Of a stretch of DNA of 64,000 nucleotides, positions 51,164-59,532 are shown piece by piece. Below the pieces are notes generated by a model. The model did not search any database. It saw only the letters and a program-made list of their open reading frames with translations, and was not told the origin of the DNA. The stretch is from Polaribacter litorisediminis (GTDB lineage: Bacteria; Bacteroidota; Bacteroidia; Flavobacteriales; Flavobacteriaceae), in assembly GCF_019968605.1 (NCBI RefSeq), contig NZ_CP082966.1, positions 3,647,501 to 3,711,500 of the forward strand, written 5' to 3'. Every line of letters begins with the position of its first letter. Within the stretch, counting starts at the first letter, position 1. The position numbers were made by a program, and so were the translations under genes.

Positions 51164-52003
51164 ATGAAAAATATTAAAAATAGTATTATTGATGGAAAAC
51201 ATCAAAAACCAATCGTAACAGACGTTTTTTATAACGAAACCCATCAACCCAAAAAAGTAGTTATTTTTTGTCATGGTTACAAAGGTTTTAAAGATTGGGG
51301 CGCTTGGAATTTAATGGCAGAAGCATTTGCAAAAGCTGGTTTTTTCTTTATCAAATTCAATTTTTCTCATAACGGCGGAACTCCAGAACAACCCATTGAT
51401 TTTCCAGATTTAGAAGCTTTTGGGAACAATAATTACTCCAAGGAATTAGACGATTTAGAAAGTGTTTTAGATTGGATTTCGAGAACTACAGATTTTAAAA
51501 ACGAAATAAATAGTACTGATATTTCGTTGATAGGGCATAGTAGAGGTGGCGGAATTGTATTGCTAAAAGCAAACGAAGATGCAAGAATAAAAGAAGTAAT
51601 TACTTTAGCTGCGGTTTGTGATTTTGGGTCAAGAAGCACTATTACTGGTGATTTAGAAAACTGGAAGAATGAAGGTGTTAAATATGTTGTAAATGGAAGA
51701 ACAAAACAGCAAATGCCTCATTTTTATCAGTTTTATGAAGATTTTAAAGCCAATGAAGAACGACTACATATTCAAAAAGCAGTAGAAAAAATAAAAGTTC
51801 CGCAATTAATAATTCATGGAGATCAAGATACCTCAATTTCTATTGATGAAGCGCATAAAATTCATTCTTGGAATGGGAACAGTATTTTAAAGTTCATAAA
51901 AAATGCAGATCATGTGTTTAATGTTTGTCATCCTTGGGAAAAAGAAAAAATGTCTAAAGAATTGGCAGAAACAACACAACTTTGTATCGATTTTTTAAAA
52001 TAA
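51164..52003 (+). CDS. Alpha/beta hydrolase
   Basis: 279 residues. 'VIFCHGYKGFKDWGAWNLMA' (oxyanion HGYKG), nucleophile GHSRGGG (about 121-127), 'IIHGDQDTSI' with likely Asp and 'ADHVFNV' with His form the Ser-Asp-His set. Likely soluble, cytoplasmic; acyl ester or peptide substrate unknown. Likely same transcript as the LysE gene. Confidence 0.88.
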   Translation: MKNIKNSIIDGKHQKPIVTDVFYNETHQPKKVVIFCHGYKGFKDWGAWNLMAEAFAKAGFFFIKFNFSHNGGTPEQPIDFPDLEAFGNNNYSKELDDLESVLDWISRTTDFKNEINSTDISLIGHSRGGGIVLLKANEDARIKEVITLAAVCDFGSRSTITGDLENWKNEGVKYVVNGRTKQQMPHFYQFYEDFKANEERLHIQKAVEKIKVPQLIIHGDQDTSISIDEAHKIHSWNGNSILKFIKNADHVFNVCHPWEKEKMSKELAETTQLCIDFLK

Positions 52004-52071
52004 ATAAACAACAATTTTAAGGTACAAAAAATGGATTTCTATTGTATATTTAAGCAAATAAAAATGAAAAC

Positions 52072-52557
52072 ATGGCGTTAATTAAATGTTTAGAATGTAA
52101 AAAAGAAATTAGCGATAAAGCTAAAATTTGTCCAAACTGCGGAATGGCCTTAAAAAAGAAATCTAATATTATTTTACCTCTATTATTGGGTATTATCACC
52201 CCAATATTGATTATAAGCTTTTTTTTGCAATCAGAAAGTGAGAGTGAATTTGATTATAGAATTGATAAATCAGATAATTCCACAAGTAAAGAAAGGAAAA
52301 AAAGCAATTCTATTAGTAAAACAGAAGCAGCTTATTCAGCACAAAAATTTGTTGAAAAACAATTAAAAGCTCCGAGTACAGCAAAATTTCCTTCACTAAA
52401 CAAGGCAAATATTAAAAAATCTAATGACGTTTATGAAGTTTCATCTTATGTTGACTCACAAAATGGTTTCGGAGCAATGATAAGAAGTAATTATACTGTA
52501 AAAATTAGCAGAAAAGATAACGGAAATATTACTCTTTTGGATATTAAAATTGATTAA
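52072..52557 (+). CDS. Zinc-ribbon membrane protein
   Basis: 161 residues. Two CxxC knuckles, CLEC (6-9) and CPNC (20-23), form a zinc ribbon (~1-30). One transmembrane helix follows (IILPLLLGIITPILIISFFL, ~33-52), then a low-complexity Ser/Lys linker and a C-terminal beta domain (~85-161; 'FVEKQLKAPSTAKFPSLNKA'). The ribbon plus one helix is common in Bacteroidetes accessory regions; function unknown. The next gene starts 11 bp downstream and begins with an almost identical ribbon. Near-consensus TATATTTA precedes it. Confidence 0.78.
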   Translation: MALIKCLECKKEISDKAKICPNCGMALKKKSNIILPLLLGIITPILIISFFLQSESESEFDYRIDKSDNSTSKERKKSNSISKTEAAYSAQKFVEKQLKAPSTAKFPSLNKANIKKSNDVYEVSSYVDSQNGFGAMIRSNYTVKISRKDNGNITLLDIKID

Positions 52558-52568
52558 ATATAAAAAAT

Positions 52569-53288
52569 ATGGGGTTAATAAATTGTTCCGAGTGCAAAAA
52601 AGAAATAAGTGATAAAGCAAAGAGTTGTCCAAGTTGTGGAAACCCAATAAACCAATTAGTCGAACAAAGTAAGGATGTTGGTTTTGAATTATTGAAATTC
52701 CCTAAATTACCTGAAAATTTAAAAATTGGCAAACCAATTACAAATTGGACTGGCGATAGTGCTTTTGATGGATTTTATGAGCAAAAAGAAAATACTATTA
52801 CTGAAATTAATTCAGGTAAGGTAAAAGTTAATTTACATACTCATGGAATTGAAATTTCACAAGGATTAATTAACTTCTTCCCCATTCATCAAACTCAAAT
52901 AATTAGTATAAAAAAAGCATCAAGAGAAGAAATTGCAAAAACAAAGAAAAGCGTATTAGGAAGAGCAGTTGTTGGAGGGTTAATATTAGGACCAATTGGA
53001 GCTATTGTTGGTGGAATAAGTGGTCTAGATAAAGTAAAAACCGAAAATATTCATTATTTAGTTATTAATTACTGGGAAGTAGAATCTAAATCTGCAAAAA
53101 CTTTACTAATAAGTGGAGTAAATAATTTGATTTCAGCATTTATAAAAAGGTACAAGGTAGAGCAAATAATTAATGTAAAGGAAAGAAGAAAAGCTGAAGA
53201 TATTGAAATTACCCCAGCAATTTTAATTCAAAACATTTTAGGTCTTTTAGTAATAGTTTCTATGATAATTTACCTCTTATTTTTCTAA
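52569..53288 (+). CDS. Zinc-ribbon protein with glycine-rich and C-terminal membrane segments
   Basis: 239 residues. N-terminal ribbon with CSEC (6-9) and CPSC (20-23), closely similar to its upstream neighbour ('CKKEISDKAKSCPSCGNPIN'), then a beta-rich middle (~45-120), a glycine-rich hydrophobic stretch 'LGRAVVGGLILGPIGAIVGG' (~135-155), and a last transmembrane helix (~215-239). No known family. The shared ribbon and 11-bp gap suggest tandem duplication of the ribbon with divergent effector domains. Confidence 0.75.
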   Translation: MGLINCSECKKEISDKAKSCPSCGNPINQLVEQSKDVGFELLKFPKLPENLKIGKPITNWTGDSAFDGFYEQKENTITEINSGKVKVNLHTHGIEISQGLINFFPIHQTQIISIKKASREEIAKTKKSVLGRAVVGGLILGPIGAIVGGISGLDKVKTENIHYLVINYWEVESKSAKTLLISGVNNLISAFIKRYKVEQIINVKERRKAEDIEITPAILIQNILGLLVIVSMIIYLLFF

Positions 53289-53476
53289 TCTTTGAGAAAA
53301 CACCATTATGAAAAAACAAAAGAAAAAAGAAACCTTACCTATATCGTTTCATAAGATATAATATCAAATGCTTATTACTTCTATTTGTTGCTAATGACAA
53401 AGGCAGTAACTCTATTTGCTAGAAATTTTAAATAGATTTTGTAACTTTATCAAGTAAATTTTTAAAAAAAATTATT

Positions 53477-53740
53477 ATGACAGCACAATTAACAGTATTA
53501 ACTGTAATCTTTTTAGGGGCTATTATATTTTTTCTCTTGATAAGAGAAATAGTATGTTGGTACTATAAAATAAACATTAGAATTGAGCTACAAAAAGAAA
53601 CTAATAGCCTTTTGAGGAGGTTAGTTGAAAAAAATGAAAGTAAAGTAAGCGAAAAAAATAATTCTGATAGTTCAGAAACTACATTTTATGGTGATAAAGA
53701 CGAATTAAAAAAAGCTCTTGGTGAACTTCGGGGTCAATAG
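53477..53740 (+). CDS. Small single-helix membrane protein
   Basis: 87 residues with one N-terminal hydrophobic helix (~7-27, 'VLTVIFLGAIIFFLLIREIV') then a charged, helical cytoplasmic tail ('LRRLVEKNESKVSEKNNSD'). No family recognised. Base composition is like the surrounding accessory genes. Confidence 0.6.
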   Translation: MTAQLTVLTVIFLGAIIFFLLIREIVCWYYKINIRIELQKETNSLLRRLVEKNESKVSEKNNSDSSETTFYGDKDELKKALGELRGQ

Positions 53741-54088
53741 TATGCACGAAATGACGCTTTAAAAACAACTTTATTTTTTTAACTTTTAAAAAAAACCTTT
53801 AATTACGGAAACTCGTAAAATTCTTTAAAACATAGATTGTAAGTTTGTTTAAAAAAAACTTATGATAGAAGATGCAGTAGCACAAATCGCAGGAATTATC
53901 AATACTTTTCCTGGTATTAAAGAAACTGTTATAAACATAAAAAGCCCTTTAGATAGTCTGCTAGAAAAGACTAATTTTAGAACGTAGAACATATATGCGA
54001 TTTATCAACAATGAGCATATACAATTGTTGGCAAACATTTAAGCATATTATAGACAATAACGTGTGAAAGGAAAAAAACATAAAAAGT
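53741..54088. other. Intergenic gap with a possible 41-aa ORF and a hairpin
   Basis: 348 bp. A 41-codon ORF (53862-53987) is listed separately. A perfect 7-bp stem CAACAAT/ATTGTTG (about 54008-54034) lies to its right, and 'GGCAAACATTTAAGCATAT' follows. No gene of the usual size. It resembles the cassette-type spacers further right but lacks their AACGTTRCYAGCAA motif. Confidence 0.4.
53862..53987 (+). CDS. Possible micro-ORF or gene remnant (41 aa)
   Basis: ATG at 53862, TAG ending at 53987. 'MIEDAVAQIAGIINTFPGIK' then 'ETVINIKSPLDSLLEKTNFR' and T. The composition is protein-like, but length, lack of a visible signal or family, and decay-like surroundings make it uncertain; it may be the start of a truncated gene. 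Confidence 0.25.
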   Translation: MIEDAVAQIAGIINTFPGIKETVINIKSPLDSLLEKTNFRT

Positions 54089-54649
54089 ATGAGTAAAAGA
54101 AATGATGATTTAGATGCTATTTTAGAAGTACTTATGTTTAACGCTGTTCCTATATTTAAAGAATTGGCTAAAAACGCTTATGGTTCTGAAAAACTAACTA
54201 AAGAATCATTGAAAGATTCCCTTGCAAAATTAGAATTAGAAGATTGGATTCTTGAAAAATATTTGGACAAATTAGAGAAAGACGGCTATATTGAATATGA
54301 AAACGGATTTGTATCCATAAGCAATAAAGGAGAAAATTTCAAAATAAACGAAGGAGGTTTTAGAGGTGTTTCTAAAAAGAACAAAAAAGAGGAAGAAAGA
54401 CAAGAAAAAAAAGATTGGATACTTAATTTTGACAAAAAATGGAGAATACCGGCATCAATAATAGTCGTTATCGGGGTTGTTTTTGGTGGCATAAAGTTAT
54501 TTAACACTATGAATATCTCAAAATCAAACGAACCAATCGAAACAAAAAAAGGAAATATAGAACCAAGAGAAAATAGTATTGAATTACAGGAAAATAAAAT
54601 TGAAAAAAAGGAGGTTGACAGCTTAAAGTCAACAAAAAAATCTGAATAA
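54089..54649 (+). CDS. Winged-helix-like membrane protein
   Basis: 186 residues. N-terminal ~90 residues resemble a winged helix: helix 'AILEVLMFNAVPIFKELAK', helix-turn-helix 'KESLKDSLAKLELEDWILEK', wing 'KDGYIEYENGFVSISNKGE'. A transmembrane helix (~122-139, 'RIPASIIVVIGVVFGGI') and a charged repetitive tail (~145-186) follow. It could be a membrane-tethered transcription factor, or the winged helix could be a protein-protein element. Family unknown. Confidence 0.6.
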   Translation: MSKRNDDLDAILEVLMFNAVPIFKELAKNAYGSEKLTKESLKDSLAKLELEDWILEKYLDKLEKDGYIEYENGFVSISNKGENFKINEGGFRGVSKKNKKEEERQEKKDWILNFDKKWRIPASIIVVIGVVFGGIKLFNTMNISKSNEPIETKKGNIEPRENSIELQENKIEKKEVDSLKSTKKSE

Positions 54650-54663
54650 TAAAACGATTTGCC

Positions 54664-54767
54664 AAAACCGTATAAAAATAATTGCGGTTTAGTGCTTAAT
54701 CAAAGGACGTTGCGTGTTTGTAACGTCTGATTTTCCTTTGGAAAATCCTCGCATACAAACCAGCAAC
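54664..54767. repeat. Cassette-boundary hairpins before the methylase-like gene
   Basis: AAACCG...CGGTTT hairpin (54664-54690), then an imperfect palindrome GTTGCGTGTTTGTA...TACAAACCAGCAAC (54709-54767) enclosing GATTTTCC-TTT-GGAAAATC (54729-54747). It precedes the AACGTTACCAGCAA motif at 54782-54795. Confidence 0.6.
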
Positions 54768-54781
54768 TATTCTTAAACATA

Positions 54782-54795
54782 AACGTTACCAGCAA
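54782..54795 (+). repeat. Boundary motif AACGTTRCYAGCAA, copy 1
   Basis: AACGTTACCAGCAA lies 20 bases before the ATG of the methylase-like gene. A near-identical motif (AACGTTGCTAGCAA) lies at 57418-57431 before the antitoxin gene; both are preceded by a GCAAC and an AAATCC..GGATTT-type hairpin. Confidence 0.55.
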
Positions 54796-54815
54796 GCTAA
54801 AAAAACTGACAACCA

Positions 54816-57077
54816 ATGAAAGATCAAGAGATTAAAAATAAAATTTGGAACAAACTCAATAAACTGCGAGCTGACCGAAACTTCTCTGGTTTTCGTGACA
54901 CTAAAATATTGGAATTTATCGGAGTAAAATTAGGGATTGAAAAACTTGATTCTATTCTCAATAATAAAGAATTATTATTGAAAATGGCAGAAACTTTTAC
55001 AATTACAGCACCAACCTATGTTTATAATTTTATAGAGGAGATAATAAAATCAGAAAATAGTAAAACATTTTTTGACCCTTGGCTGACGGTTTCTTCACCT
55101 GCATTATACACAGAGAATAAAACTTTAAACGGAACCTGTATAAATAAAACGGAACTTGATATAATAAAAACGATATTCAAGGAAAAAAGCCAAAACATTA
55201 AACTTGGCGATACTTTAGAAATACTTTCGGAAACAAGTGAAAAATTAGAGTTAGTTGTTTCATTTCCGCCTTTCGGAATGCGAATTCAAAGTATAAATGG
55301 AACAAAAAGTAAATTTGATTTTGCAACAACTTTACTTTTAGAATGTGGGAAAAAAATTGAAAATGACGGTAAACTAATTTTCCTTGTTTCTAACTCTTTT
55401 TTCATGGATGAAAAAGGGAAAGAAGAACTAATGAAAAAAGGTCTTTTTGTTGAAGCTGTTTTTTCAATTCCTTCTGGTGCATTAGCCCCAATAACAAATA
55501 TTGCTTCAAATTTAATTTTAGTTACTAAAAATAATATAGAAAAAACATTTGTCGCAGAAATATCCACAGACGAAAGCACAAATATTTCAATACTTAAAAA
55601 TTTCAGAAGCCAAAAGGAAGGTAAAGCTATACAACTTGGTTGTTTTGTGGATATAAGGGAGTTTAAATCCTTAAACTCATTAGTTGCTGGAAAAGAAATG
55701 AATGATTTGGTTAAAAGAATTGGCTATCCGCCAATTCTTTTAACTGATATTTTGATTTCAATTAATGCACTGAAAGGCGATAATTCACAAGAAGTTGTGC
55801 ATTTGTCAAACTCAATTTACTTACCAAAAGTTGGTAATAGTCCTGTAGTTGCAAGTTTGTCGGAACTGAAAATAAAACCGAAAAATTATTACCAAATTCA
55901 ACTAGACGAGAAAAAAGCCAATGCAATTTATATAGCAAATTATTTCAACACGGCAGTTGGTAGAAAATTGAGAGCAAGTATAGAAGTTGGTGCAGTTATT
56001 CCACAGATTTCAAAATCACAACTCACAAAATGTATTTTCTATGTTCCAGACTTAAATACACAAGCGGAATTAATCGAAGTTGATAATAGAATACAGCAAT
56101 TTACATTTAGACTTGATGAACTTCAAAGGAACTTATGGAAGCAACCTAAAAGCTATAAGTCAATTGTAAAGGAATTAAAAACAATCAATCAAGAAGAAAA
56201 ACTTGAAAATTGGATTGATAAATTACCATTTCCAATTTCGTCAATTCTTTGGCGTTATTATGCTACTAAAAACAATAGTAAAAAAATTGAACATTTATTT
56301 CACTTCTTTGAAGCATTTTCAGAATTCCTATCAATGCTTATGTTAAGTGCTTTAGTTCAAGACAAAGAATTCTATAATGCAGAAAGTCATAACTGGATTG
56401 GCAAACAAGAAAAATTTAAAAATTGGTATTTAAGAGCAACTTTTGGTAATTGGAATAATCTAACGTCTAATCTTTCAAAAGCTATTAGAAAGTATCTTTC
56501 AGAAAGTGATAAAAAAGAGTATTGCAAAAATCTTTTTGGAAACCCAAGTGATTCTTTTCTTTCAATGATTACGAGTAAAGGAATTGTAAATGTACTATTT
56601 GAAGTTGCAAGTTTAAGAAATAAATGGAAAGGTCACGGAGGAATTACAAGTGAAACAGAAAACATTCAACGTGTTTTAACACTTGAAAAACAATTAAACG
56701 AATTTAGAAAATACATTGCTGATGCTTTTGACGAAACTACAATGCTATCACCAACAACGAGTAGTTTTGAAGATGGAATTTTCACATTTAATGCAAAACA
56801 GCTTATTGGTGCAAGAACACCATTTAATGAAATAACAATTAAAAGTCTAATTCCACTTGACAGAAAAAAACTTTATTTAAGCAATTCTCAACAGACAAAA
56901 CCTTTGGAATTACTACCATTTATAAAATTCATAGAAGCAACAGACGCAATTTATTTTTATACAAGTATTGAAAGTAAAGATGTTCGTTGGGTTTCTTACC
57001 ATTTTGACAAAGAAGCGGAATTGAAGCAACCTGCGGACAATGAATTATTTAAAGCATTTGATTTCCTGAAACAATAG
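54816..57077 (+). CDS. Degenerate N6-methylase/S-subunit-like fusion with HEPN-like C-terminus
   Basis: 753 residues. Residues ~1-260 align with HsdM-type N6-adenine methylases: helical N-terminus, 'TITAPTYVYNFIEEII', 'FDPWLTVSSPAL' (86-97) where DPxCGSGG would be, 'GDTLEIL' (131-137), and SFPPFG (149-154) where NPPF is needed. The SAM and catalytic motifs are broken, so it should not methylate. About 265-430 resembles a type I S-subunit half ('FNTAVGRKLRASIEVGAVIP', 'TKCIFYVPDLNTQAEL', the recognition-domain plus coiled-coil pattern). The ~460-690 helical region carries R601 and H607 (RNKWKGH), an RxxxxxH pattern like HEPN RNases. It is a lone gene between boundary motifs; no restriction subunit lies nearby. 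Defence role is an inference. Confidence 0.75.
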   Translation: MKDQEIKNKIWNKLNKLRADRNFSGFRDTKILEFIGVKLGIEKLDSILNNKELLLKMAETFTITAPTYVYNFIEEIIKSENSKTFFDPWLTVSSPALYTENKTLNGTCINKTELDIIKTIFKEKSQNIKLGDTLEILSETSEKLELVVSFPPFGMRIQSINGTKSKFDFATTLLLECGKKIENDGKLIFLVSNSFFMDEKGKEELMKKGLFVEAVFSIPSGALAPITNIASNLILVTKNNIEKTFVAEISTDESTNISILKNFRSQKEGKAIQLGCFVDIREFKSLNSLVAGKEMNDLVKRIGYPPILLTDILISINALKGDNSQEVVHLSNSIYLPKVGNSPVVASLSELKIKPKNYYQIQLDEKKANAIYIANYFNTAVGRKLRASIEVGAVIPQISKSQLTKCIFYVPDLNTQAELIEVDNRIQQFTFRLDELQRNLWKQPKSYKSIVKELKTINQEEKLENWIDKLPFPISSILWRYYATKNNSKKIEHLFHFFEAFSEFLSMLMLSALVQDKEFYNAESHNWIGKQEKFKNWYLRATFGNWNNLTSNLSKAIRKYLSESDKKEYCKNLFGNPSDSFLSMITSKGIVNVLFEVASLRNKWKGHGGITSETENIQRVLTLEKQLNEFRKYIADAFDETTMLSPTTSSFEDGIFTFNAKQLIGARTPFNEITIKSLIPLDRKKLYLSNSQQTKPLELLPFIKFIEATDAIYFYTSIESKDVRWVSYHFDKEAELKQPADNELFKAFDFLKQ

Positions 57078-57103
57078 ACAATGAACAAAGAAAGCCTGTA
57101 TGT

Positions 57104-57272
57104 AATAACTAAGCCTATGACCCGCCGATAGGCCAACGCTATATGCCTTGTTGACTGATCCATTGCTAAGGATAAGGGGTAAAACGACGGTTTGGGTGTG
57201 GGTTTTAAAAGGAGTGTCATTGGGGAAAGTAGAGTATTTTCAATAGTTCTATTACATACAAGCTATTTATGA
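57104..57272 (+). repeat. Direct repeat R1 (~169 bp) left of the toxin-antitoxin pair
   Basis: AATAACTAAGCCTATGACCC... is the start. It shares its first 30 bases and most of the rest (including GGTTTTGAAAAGG-like, AAAACGACGGTTTGG and GCTATTTATGA blocks) with R2 at 58034-58195. Contains a GCCTAT/ATAGGC hairpin. It begins 27 bases after the methylase-like gene stop. Confidence 0.8.
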
Positions 57273-57417
57273 TCCGCTTTTTTTAATTTTTAGTTCAACA
57301 CCATATATAATTTATTGCTAGTACTCGCCTACTTACGTAAATCCTTGCGGATTTTCTATTCGGTTTATATTTGCTAAATTAGTTACTGAACCAAGCAACA
57401 AAATCATACACAAAAAC

Positions 57418-57431
57418 AACGTTGCTAGCAA
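57418..57431 (+). repeat. Boundary motif AACGTTRCYAGCAA, copy 2
   Basis: AACGTTGCTAGCAA, two mismatches to copy 1 at 54782. Preceded at ~20 bases by GCAAC and by the 57339 hairpin. Confidence 0.55.
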
Positions 57432-57441
57432 TACGAAAAAT

Positions 57442-57476
57442 TTTGGGTAAATCATATTTTGTACATACATTTGTAC
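57442..57476 (+). promoter_or_regulatory. Promoter and YefM/YoeB-type operator
   Basis: -33 TTTG (57442-57445) and -7 TACATTTG (57466-57473) with a 20-bp spacer. TGTACA (57460-57465) and TGTACT (57472-57477) overlap the -7 box, centred 12 bp apart. E. coli yefM-yoeB is known to be repressed through TGTACA palindromes at this centre-to-centre spacing, so this looks like an autoregulatory operator. Confidence 0.6.
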
Positions 57477-57494
57477 TTAATAAAATACAATATT

Positions 57495-57758
57495 ATGCTA
57501 ATAACAACTGTTTCTGACTTCAGAAAAGATATTAAAAGTTACTTAGACAAAGTTGTGAAGAACTTTGAGACATTGATAATAAATCGCGGAAAAGATTCCG
57601 GAATTGTAGTTATGTCATTGCAAGAATACAATTCTTTAATGGCTACAAATCACGAACTGTCTTCACGAAAGAATGAATTAAGATTAGATTCTGCAATTGA
57701 CAAGCTAAAAAGCGGAAGGACTTTTAACAAAGACCTAAAAGACCTAATCGAAAATTAA
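57495..57758 (+). CDS. YefM/Phd-family antitoxin
   Basis: 87 residues from the ATG at 57495; a longer frame starting at 57459 would overlap the promoter. 'MLITTVSDFRKDIKSYLDKV' and 'LIINRGKDSGIVVMSLQEYN' are the Phd/YefM DNA-binding half, followed by a variable C-terminal toxin-binding tail ('LDSAIDKLKSGRTFNKDLKD'). It is cotranscribed with the toxin, separated by one base. Confidence 0.88.
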   Translation: MLITTVSDFRKDIKSYLDKVVKNFETLIINRGKDSGIVVMSLQEYNSLMATNHELSSRKNELRLDSAIDKLKSGRTFNKDLKDLIEN

Positions 57759-57759
57759 A

Positions 57760-58017
57760 ATGAAGTATATATTCGTTGACGAGTCTTGGGAAGATTATTT
57801 GTATTGGCAAAAAACGGACAAGAAAAAGCTGAAAAAAATAAATGAACTTCTGGAAGACATCTCTCGAAATCCTTTTGATGGAATTGGAAAACCTGAACCG
57901 CTAAAACATAAATACGCAGGATTTTGGTCAAGAAGGATGGATAGCGAACATAGACTGATTTACCAATATAAAGAAGGAGAAATATTAATTGCGAAATGCA
58001 GATTTCATTATGACTGA
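57760..58017 (+). CDS. YoeB/Txe-family toxin
   Basis: 85 residues of the RelE-like mRNA-interferase fold: 'YIFVDESWEDYLYWQKTDKK', 'INELLEDISRNPFDGIGKPE', 'HKYAGFWSRRMDSEHRLIYQ' and the final 'CRFHYD' with the catalytic-region His-Tyr of the YoeB family. It cleaves mRNA in the ribosome A site when antitoxin is lost. Flanked by R1/R2. Confidence 0.9.
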   Translation: MKYIFVDESWEDYLYWQKTDKKKLKKINELLEDISRNPFDGIGKPEPLKHKYAGFWSRRMDSEHRLIYQYKEGEILIAKCRFHYD

Positions 58018-58335
58018 AAAAAGCACTTTTGCCAATAACTAAGCCTATGACCCGCCGATAGGCGAACGCTATATATCTTATGGACTAATCCATCGCTAAG
58101 GATAAGGGGGAAAACGACGGTTTGGTTTTGAAAAGGAGTGTGACTGGGGAAAGGAAAGCGTTTTTAAGATTTCTATTGCAAACGAGCTATTTATGAACGA
58201 CTATAACTTCTATTATGTAAAAAGAAAATACTTAATGGAAACTCAAATAATTTTACTAACAATGCGAAAATCGTACAAATTACAAAACCAAAAAACCCAA
58301 CTACTTTAAAATAAAATAGTTGAAGTTTTTGTTTG
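58018..58335. other. Intergenic gap between toxin and tRNA-Ala
   Basis: 318 bp. Holds R2 (58034-58195) and about 140 bp of AT-rich DNA up to the tRNA 3' end; an AACTACTTTAAAATAAAATAGTT stretch (about 58299-58321) could be the tRNA terminator. No gene. Confidence 0.6.
58034..58195 (+). repeat. Direct repeat R2 (~162 bp) right of the toxin-antitoxin pair
   Basis: Begins AATAACTAAGCCTATGACCC, ends GCTATTTATGA; matches R1 at 57104-57272 with scattered differences and a few short gaps. Recombination between R1 and R2 would remove exactly the antitoxin-toxin pair plus one copy. Confidence 0.8.
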
Positions 58336-58409
58336 TGGAGCATATCAGATTCGAACTGACGACCTCTACGCTGCCAGCGTAGCGCTCTAGCCAACTGAGC
58401 TAATGCCCC
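58336..58409 (-). tRNA. tRNA-Ala (anticodon GGC)
   Basis: A full cloverleaf reads on the minus strand: GGGGCAT acceptor pairing with ATGCTCC, with the G3:U70 pair that identifies tRNA-Ala, D-arm GCTC/GAGC, anticodon stem CTACG/CGTAG, loop CTGGCAG (anticodon GGC), T-loop GTTCGAATC. CCA is not encoded. It ends the accessory island. Confidence 0.95.
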
Positions 58410-58449
58410 ATTTATTGTGAGGTAAAAATACATTTTTTTATTGATATTC

Positions 58450-59532
58450 ATGAAATTAGAACCTCCTTTTAGAAAAATCATTCATGTAGATATGGATGCG
58501 TATTATGCATCTGTAGCGGAATTAGACAACCCTGAATTAAGAGGGAAAGCCATTGCAGTTGGCGGAGGAGGAGAAAGAGGCGTGGTTTCTGCGGCTAGTT
58601 ACGAAGCTCGAAAATTTGGAGTAAAATCAGCTATGAGCGGTGTTTTGGCGCGACAAAAATGTCCACATTTAATTTTTGTGAAATCAGATTTTGCACGCTA
58701 TAAAGAACTCTCAAATCAAATTAGGAATATTTTTTATGACTATACAGATTTGGTGGAACCGCTTTCTTTAGACGAAGCTTATTTAGATGTTACCGAAAAT
58801 AAAAAAGGAAATCCATCAGCAAACGCCATCGCCAGAGAAATTAGAAAGCGTATTTATGAAGAAACGGGTTTGCGAGCTTCTGCAGGGATTTCGATTAATA
58901 AATTTATTGCAAAAGTGGCTTCTGACATCAACAAGCCCAACGGACAAAAAACAATTCATCCAGAGGAGGTTCTTACCTTTTTAGAGGAATTACCCGTCAA
59001 TAAATTTTATGGAGTGGGTAAAGTTACCGCCGCCAAAATGTATAATTTGGGTATTTTTATTGGAAACGATCTAAAGAAAAAATCGTTAGAAGAGCTGGTA
59101 AAGCTATTCGGAAAATCTGGAACTCATTATTACCATATTGTTCGCGGAATTCATCATAGTGCTGTAAAACCGAATCGAATTAGAAAATCTGTTGGTGCCG
59201 AAACAACGTTTAGTGAAAATATTTCTTCAGAAATTTATATGTTAGAACGTCTAGATCATATTGCCGATGAGATAGAAAAACGCATGAAAAAATCAAATAC
59301 CAAAGGAAAAACAATTACCTTGAAAATAAAATATTCAGATTTTACACAACAGACAAGAAGTAAAACAAAAGCGCATTTTATGCAAACTAAAAAGGAGTTT
59401 TTTCCGACGATAAAAGAATTGTTATACCAAGATAAATTAACAAATTCTGTTCGTTTATTAGGGATTTCTTTCGGAAATTTAAACACCGAAAAGAAAGAAC
59501 CAGTTTGGGTACAATTACAGTTTGATTTTTAA
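58450..59532 (+). CDS. dinB: DNA polymerase IV (Y-family)
   Basis: 360 residues from ATG at 58450. 'IHVDMDAYYASVAELDNPEL' (catalytic Asp), 'LVEPLSLDEAYLDVTE' (second catalytic Asp/Glu), 'SAGISINKFIAKVASDINKP' and little-finger 'FYGVGKVTAAKMYNLGI' are all intact. It bypasses lesions and is typically mutagenic. The beta-clamp-binding C-terminus ends 'LQFDF'. Confidence 0.95.
   Translation: MKLEPPFRKIIHVDMDAYYASVAELDNPELRGKAIAVGGGGERGVVSAASYEARKFGVKSAMSGVLARQKCPHLIFVKSDFARYKELSNQIRNIFYDYTDLVEPLSLDEAYLDVTENKKGNPSANAIAREIRKRIYEETGLRASAGISINKFIAKVASDINKPNGQKTIHPEEVLTFLEELPVNKFYGVGKVTAAKMYNLGIFIGNDLKKKSLEELVKLFGKSGTHYYHIVRGIHHSAVKPNRIRKSVGAETTFSENISSEIYMLERLDHIADEIEKRMKKSNTKGKTITLKIKYSDFTQQTRSKTKAHFMQTKKEFFPTIKELLYQDKLTNSVRLLGISFGNLNTEKKEPVWVQLQFDF

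What the first reader, a model, noticed from the sequence alone, without database searches (positions are those of the whole stretch)
54816..57077. Single-gene fusion: dead N6-methylase fold, S-subunit-like recognition region, HEPN-like RxxxxxH tail
Motif I (FDPWLTVSS) and motif IV (SFPPFG) lack the residues needed for SAM binding and methyl transfer, yet the fold, GDTL motif and the recognition-type segment are kept. The long helical C-terminus carries R601 and H607 spaced as in HEPN ribonucleases. There is no adjacent restriction or antirestriction gene and it lies in an accessory island beside a toxin-antitoxin pair. Inference: a methylase-derived DNA sensor coupled to an RNase effector, a possible abortive-infection system of a type not described to my knowledge.
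Basis: partly seen in the sequence, partly recalled or inferred. Interest (0 to 1): 0.72.

Follow-up and report, generated by a model that had tools for sequence, protein, structure and literature searches.

The report
Dead DNA methylase fused to RNase-like module
A bacterial gene joins a worn-out copy of a DNA-marking enzyme to what looks like an RNA-cutting domain; it seems to be a one-protein alarm-and-shutdown device against viruses, and some relatives in other bacteria sit inside DNA-restriction gene clusters.

Summary
ORF 54816-57077 encodes 753 aa: an N6-methylase fold without the SAM-loop glycines or the catalytic Asn (SFPPFG), a type I S-subunit-like segment, and a helical C-terminus with R601/H607. 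R and H align in 365 of 365 proteins (window included), down to 25-28% identity; an intact NPP[FYW] survives in 1 of 235 rows. The HEPN assignment rests on motif, its place in the predicted structure and a weak profile match to Swt1-type HEPN; no fold search confirmed it. Best reading: a PrrC-like second line of defence in which a decoy methylase senses infection or R-M failure and releases an RNase. The 2013 HEPN survey says R-M-linked HEPN domains do not fuse to methylases; this family is an exception, with the methylase inactivated. The gene lies in a ~6.4 kb accessory insertion. RNase activity, trigger and defence are untested.

The parts
54816..57077 (+). the gene: pseudo-N6-methylase / S-like / HEPN-like fusion, 753 aa, ATG start
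   Evidence: ORF; 230 homologues at E<=1e-3 among 7992 scored candidates, best 120 listed
54996..55685 (+). residues 61-290: N6-adenine methyltransferase fold, inactive motifs
   Evidence: Foldseek and VIA matches to type I M subunits and M.TaqI; PADLOC MTase_I, residues 124-244, E 9.2e-6
55071..55100 (+). motif I position, FDPWLTVSSP (no GxG loop)
   Evidence: sequence; DPxxGxG in 76 of 235 rows
55260..55277 (+). motif IV position, SFPPFG (Phe for catalytic Asn)
   Evidence: F 127, C 21, N 17, others 70 of 235 rows
55716..56135 (+). residues 301-440: S-subunit-like (half-S) segment ending in a long helix 413-442
   Evidence: PADLOC Specificity_I; NCBIfam MAD5 S subunit, residues 355-472, E 0.0069, 15.3 bits against a cutoff of 400; CamA-type structural match to 435
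56202..56726 (+). residues 463-637: helical HEPN-like module
   Evidence: model pLDDT 91.0, pTM 0.88 for residues 440-753; shared with kinase fusions
56310..56312 (+). E499, conserved acidic residue in the long helix before the R/H motif
   Evidence: invariant in A3 of 93 rows, at least 90% in A4
56616..56636 (+). R601-N602-...-H607 motif
   Evidence: R 93, N 92, H 93, G609 93 of 93 rows; R/H 365 of 365
56736..57020 (+). residues 641-735: small beta-rich C-terminal domain, part of the shared module
   Evidence: DSSP of the model; aligned in kinase fusions
52004..58440 (.). accessory insertion between hydrolase (51164-52003) and dinB (58441-59532)
   Evidence: near-empty sites in 4 of 10 same-genus loci, island genes in 0 of 10 at tblastn E<=1e-8
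57489..58017 (+). YefM-YoeB type toxin-antitoxin pair, neighbour, probably independent
   Evidence: Pfam and NCBIfam

Best explanation
A one-protein, R-M-linked abortive-defence device. The N-terminal half is a methyltransferase/half-S scaffold that can no longer methylate and serves as the sensing and holding part. The C-terminal half is a HEPN-type, probably dimeric, metal-independent RNase held silent by the scaffold. When the scaffold meets its trigger (foreign or unmodified DNA on the M-S surface, or loss or inhibition of the cell's type I R-M complex, for example by a DNA-mimic anti-restriction protein), the two R/H sites pair and cut RNA, probably stopping translation and sparing neighbouring cells. 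It works like PrrC, which guards a type I R-M enzyme, but with the R-M-derived part inside the same polypeptide. Shown here: architecture, loss of methylase motifs, R/H conservation, reuse of both halves with other partners, repeated type I operon linkage in relatives, accessory location. Inferred: HEPN fold, RNase activity, dimerisation, trigger, phage defence. For the window's stand-alone copy, any R-M partner must act in trans (the genome holds a type I locus with hsdR, hsdM and hsdS) or is not needed.
For: R/H in 365 of 365 proteins, kinase fusions among them; Asn of motif IV kept in 17 of 235 rows, a full NPP[FYW] in 1. R lies near the end of a helix, H in the following loop, then a helix, as the HEPN survey defines (PMC3710099 passages). 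Profile match to 27 Swt1-HEPN sequences, local, centred on RN.W..H: prob 11-31% by the range used (18% for 463-637), against at most 3.6% for 8 column shuffles of 463-637 and 4.6% for HepT against Swt1. HEPN_Swt1 is hit by 2 of 62 members, best E 0.011. Module swaps: Ser/Thr kinase N-termini and SLFN_AlbA_2 C-termini, E 1.6e-15 to 2.8e-21 in 4 loci. Type I operons in 4 of 17 loci: L006 M-DUF4268-S-R-gene, L011 M-YhcG-S-gene-R, L023 M-S-R-gene, L044 M-S-DUF4238-R-gene with McrBC beyond. One relative has an N-terminal match to the phosphorothioated-DNA-binding restriction enzyme family (P0160, E 2.1e-31, 109 bits, cutoff 180). Own genome: hsdR, hsdM and hsdS at L104.
Confidence: 0.58

Rival explanations
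1. Direct DNA-sensing RNase: the pseudo-methylase/S part binds foreign or unmodified DNA and switches on the RNase, with no role for any R-M system.
For: In 13 of 17 loci no type I operon was seen next to the gene, the window among them; M-S folds of this kind bind DNA (structural relatives CamA and M.TaqI with DNA); P0160 carries an added match to a phosphorothioated-DNA-binding family.
Against: Repeated type I operon linkage in four phyla; the S-like segment is not hypervariable (mean pair identity 0.67 against 0.43-0.71 in the other regions of A1, 0.32 against 0.17-0.41 in A5).
Confidence: 0.25
2. A restriction enzyme of type IIG-like layout: recognition by M-S, cleavage of DNA by an unrecognised C-terminal nuclease, with methylation supplied in trans by the linked type I methylase.
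For: M-S plus nuclease in one chain is the type IIG layout (BsaXI and DrdV among VIA rows); location of some relatives in R-M operons.
Against: The module is also fused to protein kinases with no DNA-binding part recognised by Pfam; its invariants include R, H and G, not PD-(D/E)XK or HNH (motifs recalled); the swapped partner is a Schlafen AlbA_2 domain.
Confidence: 0.08
3. A non-nuclease accessory or regulatory subunit: the M-S half joins or competes in type I complexes and the tail is a binding or assembly domain.
For: Operon linkage in 4 of 17 loci; no confirmed nuclease fold.
Against: Retention of R and H in all 365 proteins aligned, kinase fusions among them; copies without adjacent R-M genes.
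Confidence: 0.1

Closest known systems
PrrC / EcoprrI (anticodon nuclease lodged in a type Ic R-M locus)
   Same: R-M-linked HEPN RNase whose active site uses the R/H motif; gene lodged in an hsdMSR locus (PMC3710099 passages and section 10; PMC2610378 passages and reference list). The order hsdM-hsdS-prrC-hsdR is recalled; L011 has hsdM-yhcG-hsdS-gene-hsdR.
   Different: PrrC has an ABC-ATPase N-terminus and no methylase part; here the R-M-like part is in the same polypeptide, and many copies stand alone.
Type I M subunit with half-S; type IIG enzymes; CamA
   Same: Fold of residues 1-435.
   Different: Motifs I and IV lost; no recognised endonuclease; RNase-like tail.
Swt1-like HEPN (PF18731), e.g. 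in DUF499 ATPases (PMC3710099 section 10) of the BREX-related systems (PMC12839542 passages)
   Same: RN.W-(x)-H region, weak profile match.
   Different: Fused to pseudo-methylase or kinase, with an extra beta domain; below the Pfam cutoff.
PARIS (AriAB)
   Same: Second line of defence set off by an anti-restriction protein (PMC9122126 passages); a possible logic here.
   Different: No shared domain is claimed; trigger here unknown.
Pseudo-methylase/S + Schlafen AlbA_2 proteins found here (L046-L049)
   Same: Same scaffold, other effector domain; one beside hsdM and hsdS.
   Different: AlbA_2 in place of the HEPN-like module.

Membership tests
HEPN superfamily | Rx4-6H motif, the strongest conserved feature (PMC3710099) | tested here: met
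   R and H in 365 of 365 aligned; mostly R-x5-H; 4 of 93 rows of A3 lack one position between them, and P0200 has R-x4-H
HEPN superfamily | polar residue (N, D or H) after the R | tested here: met
   N in 92 of 93 rows
[quoted passage not shown]
   predicted model: helix 149-166 holds R162 (=R601); H168 (=H607) lies in loop 167-173; next helix 174-195
HEPN superfamily | acidic residue in helix 2, typically Ex3[KR] (present in many families, not all) | tested here: inconclusive
   E499 invariant in A3 in an earlier long helix, but followed by x3-E
HEPN superfamily | two-hairpin four-helix fold | tested here: inconclusive
   no HEPN chain seen among the Foldseek/VIA rows shown; helices compatible; coordinates not at hand
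HEPN superfamily | profile similarity to a known HEPN family | tested here: inconclusive
   Swt1-HEPN prob 11-31%, controls up to 3.6%; HepT 0.08%; Pfam HEPN_Swt1 in 2 of 62 members, best E 0.011, below cutoff
Active N6-adenine DNA methyltransferase | motif I GxG loop and motif IV (N/D/S)PP(Y/F/W) (recalled) | tested here: not met
   DPWLTVSS and SFPPFG, residue 150 = F; so it is a methylase-derived fold, not filed as a methylase
Type I R-M accessory gene | lies in an hsdMSR operon | tested here: not met
   not in the window; met in 4 of 17 loci of the family
PrrC | ABC-ATPase N-terminus with HEPN C-terminus | tested here: not met
   N-terminus is a methylase fold
Abortive infection system | protects a population from phage through arrest or death of the infected cell | not testable with these tools
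   needs phage challenge

The most novel reading that the evidence does not exclude
A decoy methylase: bacteria have kept a dead copy of the type I methylase/specificity surface as bait for phage anti-restriction (DNA-mimic) proteins or as a probe of R-M integrity, and wired it in one polypeptide to interchangeable RNase-type effectors (HEPN-like here, Schlafen AlbA_2 elsewhere). It would be a modular guard family of anti-anti-restriction immunity spread over several phyla.
Probability: 0.25. Interest if true: 0.82.

Novelty: new variant of a known kind. Interest (0 to 1): 0.62.

Why it matters
The HEPN survey concluded that R-M-linked HEPN domains fuse to nucleases, helicases and ATPases but not to methylases (PMC3710099 section 10, read whole; its table does mention occasional methylase fusions of another family, DUF86). 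This family breaks that rule, and the methylase in it is inactivated, which suggests that the rule is about active modification enzymes. It offers a single gene in which sensing by an R-M scaffold and RNase-type killing can be tested together, with natural swaps of effector (Schlafen) and of sensor (kinase) as ready-made chimeras.

Tried and rejected
Active methylase or orphan modification gene: rejected for this protein on motifs I and IV; one relative, P0357, keeps both motifs, so an active ancestor is possible. A structure-level HEPN call: tried with a separate C-terminal model against PDB, VIA and BFVD; no useful match, so left as inconclusive. HEPN comparison sets by family search: DUF4145 gave 0 of 39 genomes, HepT 3 of 39, Swt1-HEPN 7 of 118 and 30 of 385. 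S-only + HEPN architecture: P0133, P0134, P0136, P0148 and P0165 look to me like truncated or split copies, so not claimed. Phage carriage: no tblastn match at E<=1e-5 in 50,697 phage records; no relative in a first IMG/VR scan and one C-terminal fragment at a contig edge in the second (L052). Plasmids: 4 records, Streptomyces 3 and Gordonia 1; two of the Streptomyces records were not opened. MAD5/MADS membership: 15.3 bits against a cutoff of 400, rejected. Toxin-antitoxin partnership with YefM/YoeB: the pair is absent from the 10 fetched sites, but I did not search for it beside other family members, and ORFs that short fall at or under the listing limits (80 aa; 90 aa); treated as a neighbour only. 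Papers: 8 searches; I saw no description of this fusion in what was listed. One search listed 25 of 45 papers and one search listed 8 of 1,787; subscription papers, bioRxiv and supplements were out of reach.

Rows left out: one search dropped 12 gapped rows of 247 (from 246 proteins). The neighbourhood count uses 17 of 20 loci, leaving out three fragments (L008, L050, L052); flanks are short or one-sided in L002, L005, L007, L009 and L012, and genes were named by profile, in part, only in L001, L002, L006, L007, L010, L011 and L044 (and L049 of the Schlafen type), by record annotation in L022 and L023, and elsewhere by eye from ORF starts, so 4 of 17 may be an undercount. One search used 27 of the 30 Swt1 loci (one partial match left out, two cut at contig ends). 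Protein counts use the best 120 hits of each of three searches (230, 239 and 212 hits in all), and part of those proteins helped to build the profiles used to align them. A2-A5 were chosen by hand for diversity; proteins that a first motif pattern missed were left out of A3, which is why one search was run on all 365.

Full report
What is there. The window encodes one uninterrupted 753-aa protein at 54816-57077. No Pfam or NCBIfam model reaches its curated cutoff on it; PADLOC gives weak MTase_I (residues 124-244, E 9.2e-6) and Specificity_I (339-435, E 1.2e-6) matches. The AlphaFold2 model (pLDDT 79.9, pTM 0.52) matches type I M subunits over about residues 1-290 and TaqI/CamA-type methylases to residue 411-435. 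So the N-terminal 435 residues are a methylase fold plus a half-S segment ending in a long helix.

The methylase is dead. Residues 87-94 read DPWLTVSS and 149-154 SFPPFG. In 235 ungapped rows (12 of 247 left out) the catalytic Asn position is F 127, C 21, N 17, S 14, I 11, M 11, V 9, E 9, others 16. Only P0357 has NPPW, together with DPFAGVGG; two have DPPL; the other 16 with N have one or both of the next prolines altered. DPxxGxG is kept in 76 of 235. On a tree of the C-terminal module (93 rows, quick method), presence of Asn needs at least 5 changes and the motif I state 7, while the kinase/methylase architecture needs 1. The methylase has thus decayed in several ways while the tail has not.

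Modules. The same C-terminal module follows protein kinase domains (P0229 Pkinase E 3.4e-27; 115 of the 120 listed hits carry precomputed PF00069). The same pseudo-methylase/S scaffold precedes SLFN_AlbA_2 in four loci from genomes of the window's own phylum (PF04326 E 1.6e-15 to 2.8e-21). One relative, P0160, has an N-terminal match to the phosphorothioated-DNA-binding restriction enzyme family (E 2.1e-31, below its full-length cutoff). Sensor and effector halves are thus exchanged.

Neighbourhood. Of 17 loci (window, L001-L007, L009-L013, L022, L023, L044, L045) four lie in type I operons with hsdM, hsdS and hsdR: L006 Rufibacter, L011 Sumerlaeota (between hsdS and hsdR, overlapping hsdS by 4 bp), L023 Gordonia plasmid (gene split in two ORFs) and L044, from the phylum of the Bacillus locus (Pfam for the L006, L011 and L044 genes; record annotation for L023). 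McrBC genes are close by in L010 and L044, and GmrSD lies upstream in L001. One of four Schlafen-type loci also lies with hsdM and hsdS (L049). Motif IV is degenerate in the three type I operon copies I read (L006, L011, L044), so these are unlikely to be spare modification subunits; L011 keeps a GxG in motif I. The window's own genome has the gene once and, elsewhere, a type I locus with hsdR, hsdM and hsdS (L104) and an hsdM-yhcG-hsdS cluster (L103).

Distribution. Matches are rare. Counts include the seed genome: 3 of 397 family genomes (own, one other, one Schlafen-type), 5 of 395 phylum genomes (own, three Schlafen-type, one remnant), 3 of 299 in the phylum of the Bacillus locus (seed, L044, and L043 without the HEPN-like part), 1 of 251 in the phylum of the Armatimonadetes locus (the seed). 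Four plasmid records and no phage record match. In same-genus genomes the match ends of the flanking hydrolase and dinB genes are 34, 34, 110 and 112 bp apart in 4 of 10 fetched loci and 1.5-1.7 kb in three (content not examined); three show no hydrolase near dinB; none of the 10 has the island genes at E<=1e-8. The window copy is thus part of a ~6.4 kb insertion.

Mechanism. The linkage to hsdMSR resembles PrrC, which an R-M enzyme holds silent and a phage anti-restriction peptide releases (PMC3710099 section 10; PMC2610378 passages), and the logic of PARIS, set off by Ocr (PMC9122126 passages). The S-like segment is as conserved as its surroundings, which argues against a fast-changing DNA target and for a common trigger. 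My preferred mechanism is a decoy or guard methylase that releases an RNase; direct DNA sensing is the main rival. RNase activity, trigger and defence are inference.

Novelty. The HEPN survey states that R-M-linked HEPN domains do not fuse to methylases, though its table mentions occasional nucleic acid methylase fusions of another HEPN family, DUF86. Eight paper searches gave no description of this fusion in what they listed. DefensePredictor reports HEPN systems among its validated ones, a CBS-HEPN protein among them; the passages I saw do not describe this architecture (PMC13092281). I call it a new variant of R-M-linked HEPN defence.

Noticed in passing
window 58335-58409: A tRNA-Ala (GGC) gene on the minus strand sits at the right end of the insertion, next to dinB; no tRNA gene was found in the 10 same-genus loci fetched.
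   Followed up: partly
L046-L049 (G684, G506, G546, G007): Pseudo-methylase/S scaffold fused to Schlafen AlbA_2; a sister architecture, one copy beside hsdM and hsdS.
   Followed up: partly
P0229 and relatives: A large family of Ser/Thr kinase + the same HEPN-like module; the 23 used form one clade on the tree; function open.
   Followed up: partly
P0160: N-terminal match to the phosphorothioated-DNA-binding restriction enzyme family, fused to pseudo-methylase/S/HEPN-like.
   Followed up: no
P0357: The only one of 235 rows with intact motifs I and IV (DPFAGVGG, NPPW); could be an active ancestor-like form.
   Followed up: no
L103 (own genome 3308000-3325000): hsdM-yhcG-hsdS followed by a 966-aa AAA/SMC-like protein whose start reads to me like a PHP domain, a PDDEXK_4 protein and an AlbA_2 protein: a second defence cluster.
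   Followed up: no
L104 (own genome 1678000-1694000): Type I operon with a RhuM-Fic protein between hsdR and hsdM; the HEPN survey notes RhuM proteins in R-M loci with PrrC-like genes.
   Followed up: no
window 52072-53288 and 54089-54649: Two adjacent zinc-ribbon-like proteins and a winged-helix-like protein (sub-cutoff matches) in the same insertion; functions unknown.
   Followed up: no
L045 2234-3450: Two tandem 170-aa genes with identical printed starts directly upstream of the gene in another genome of the same family.
   Followed up: no
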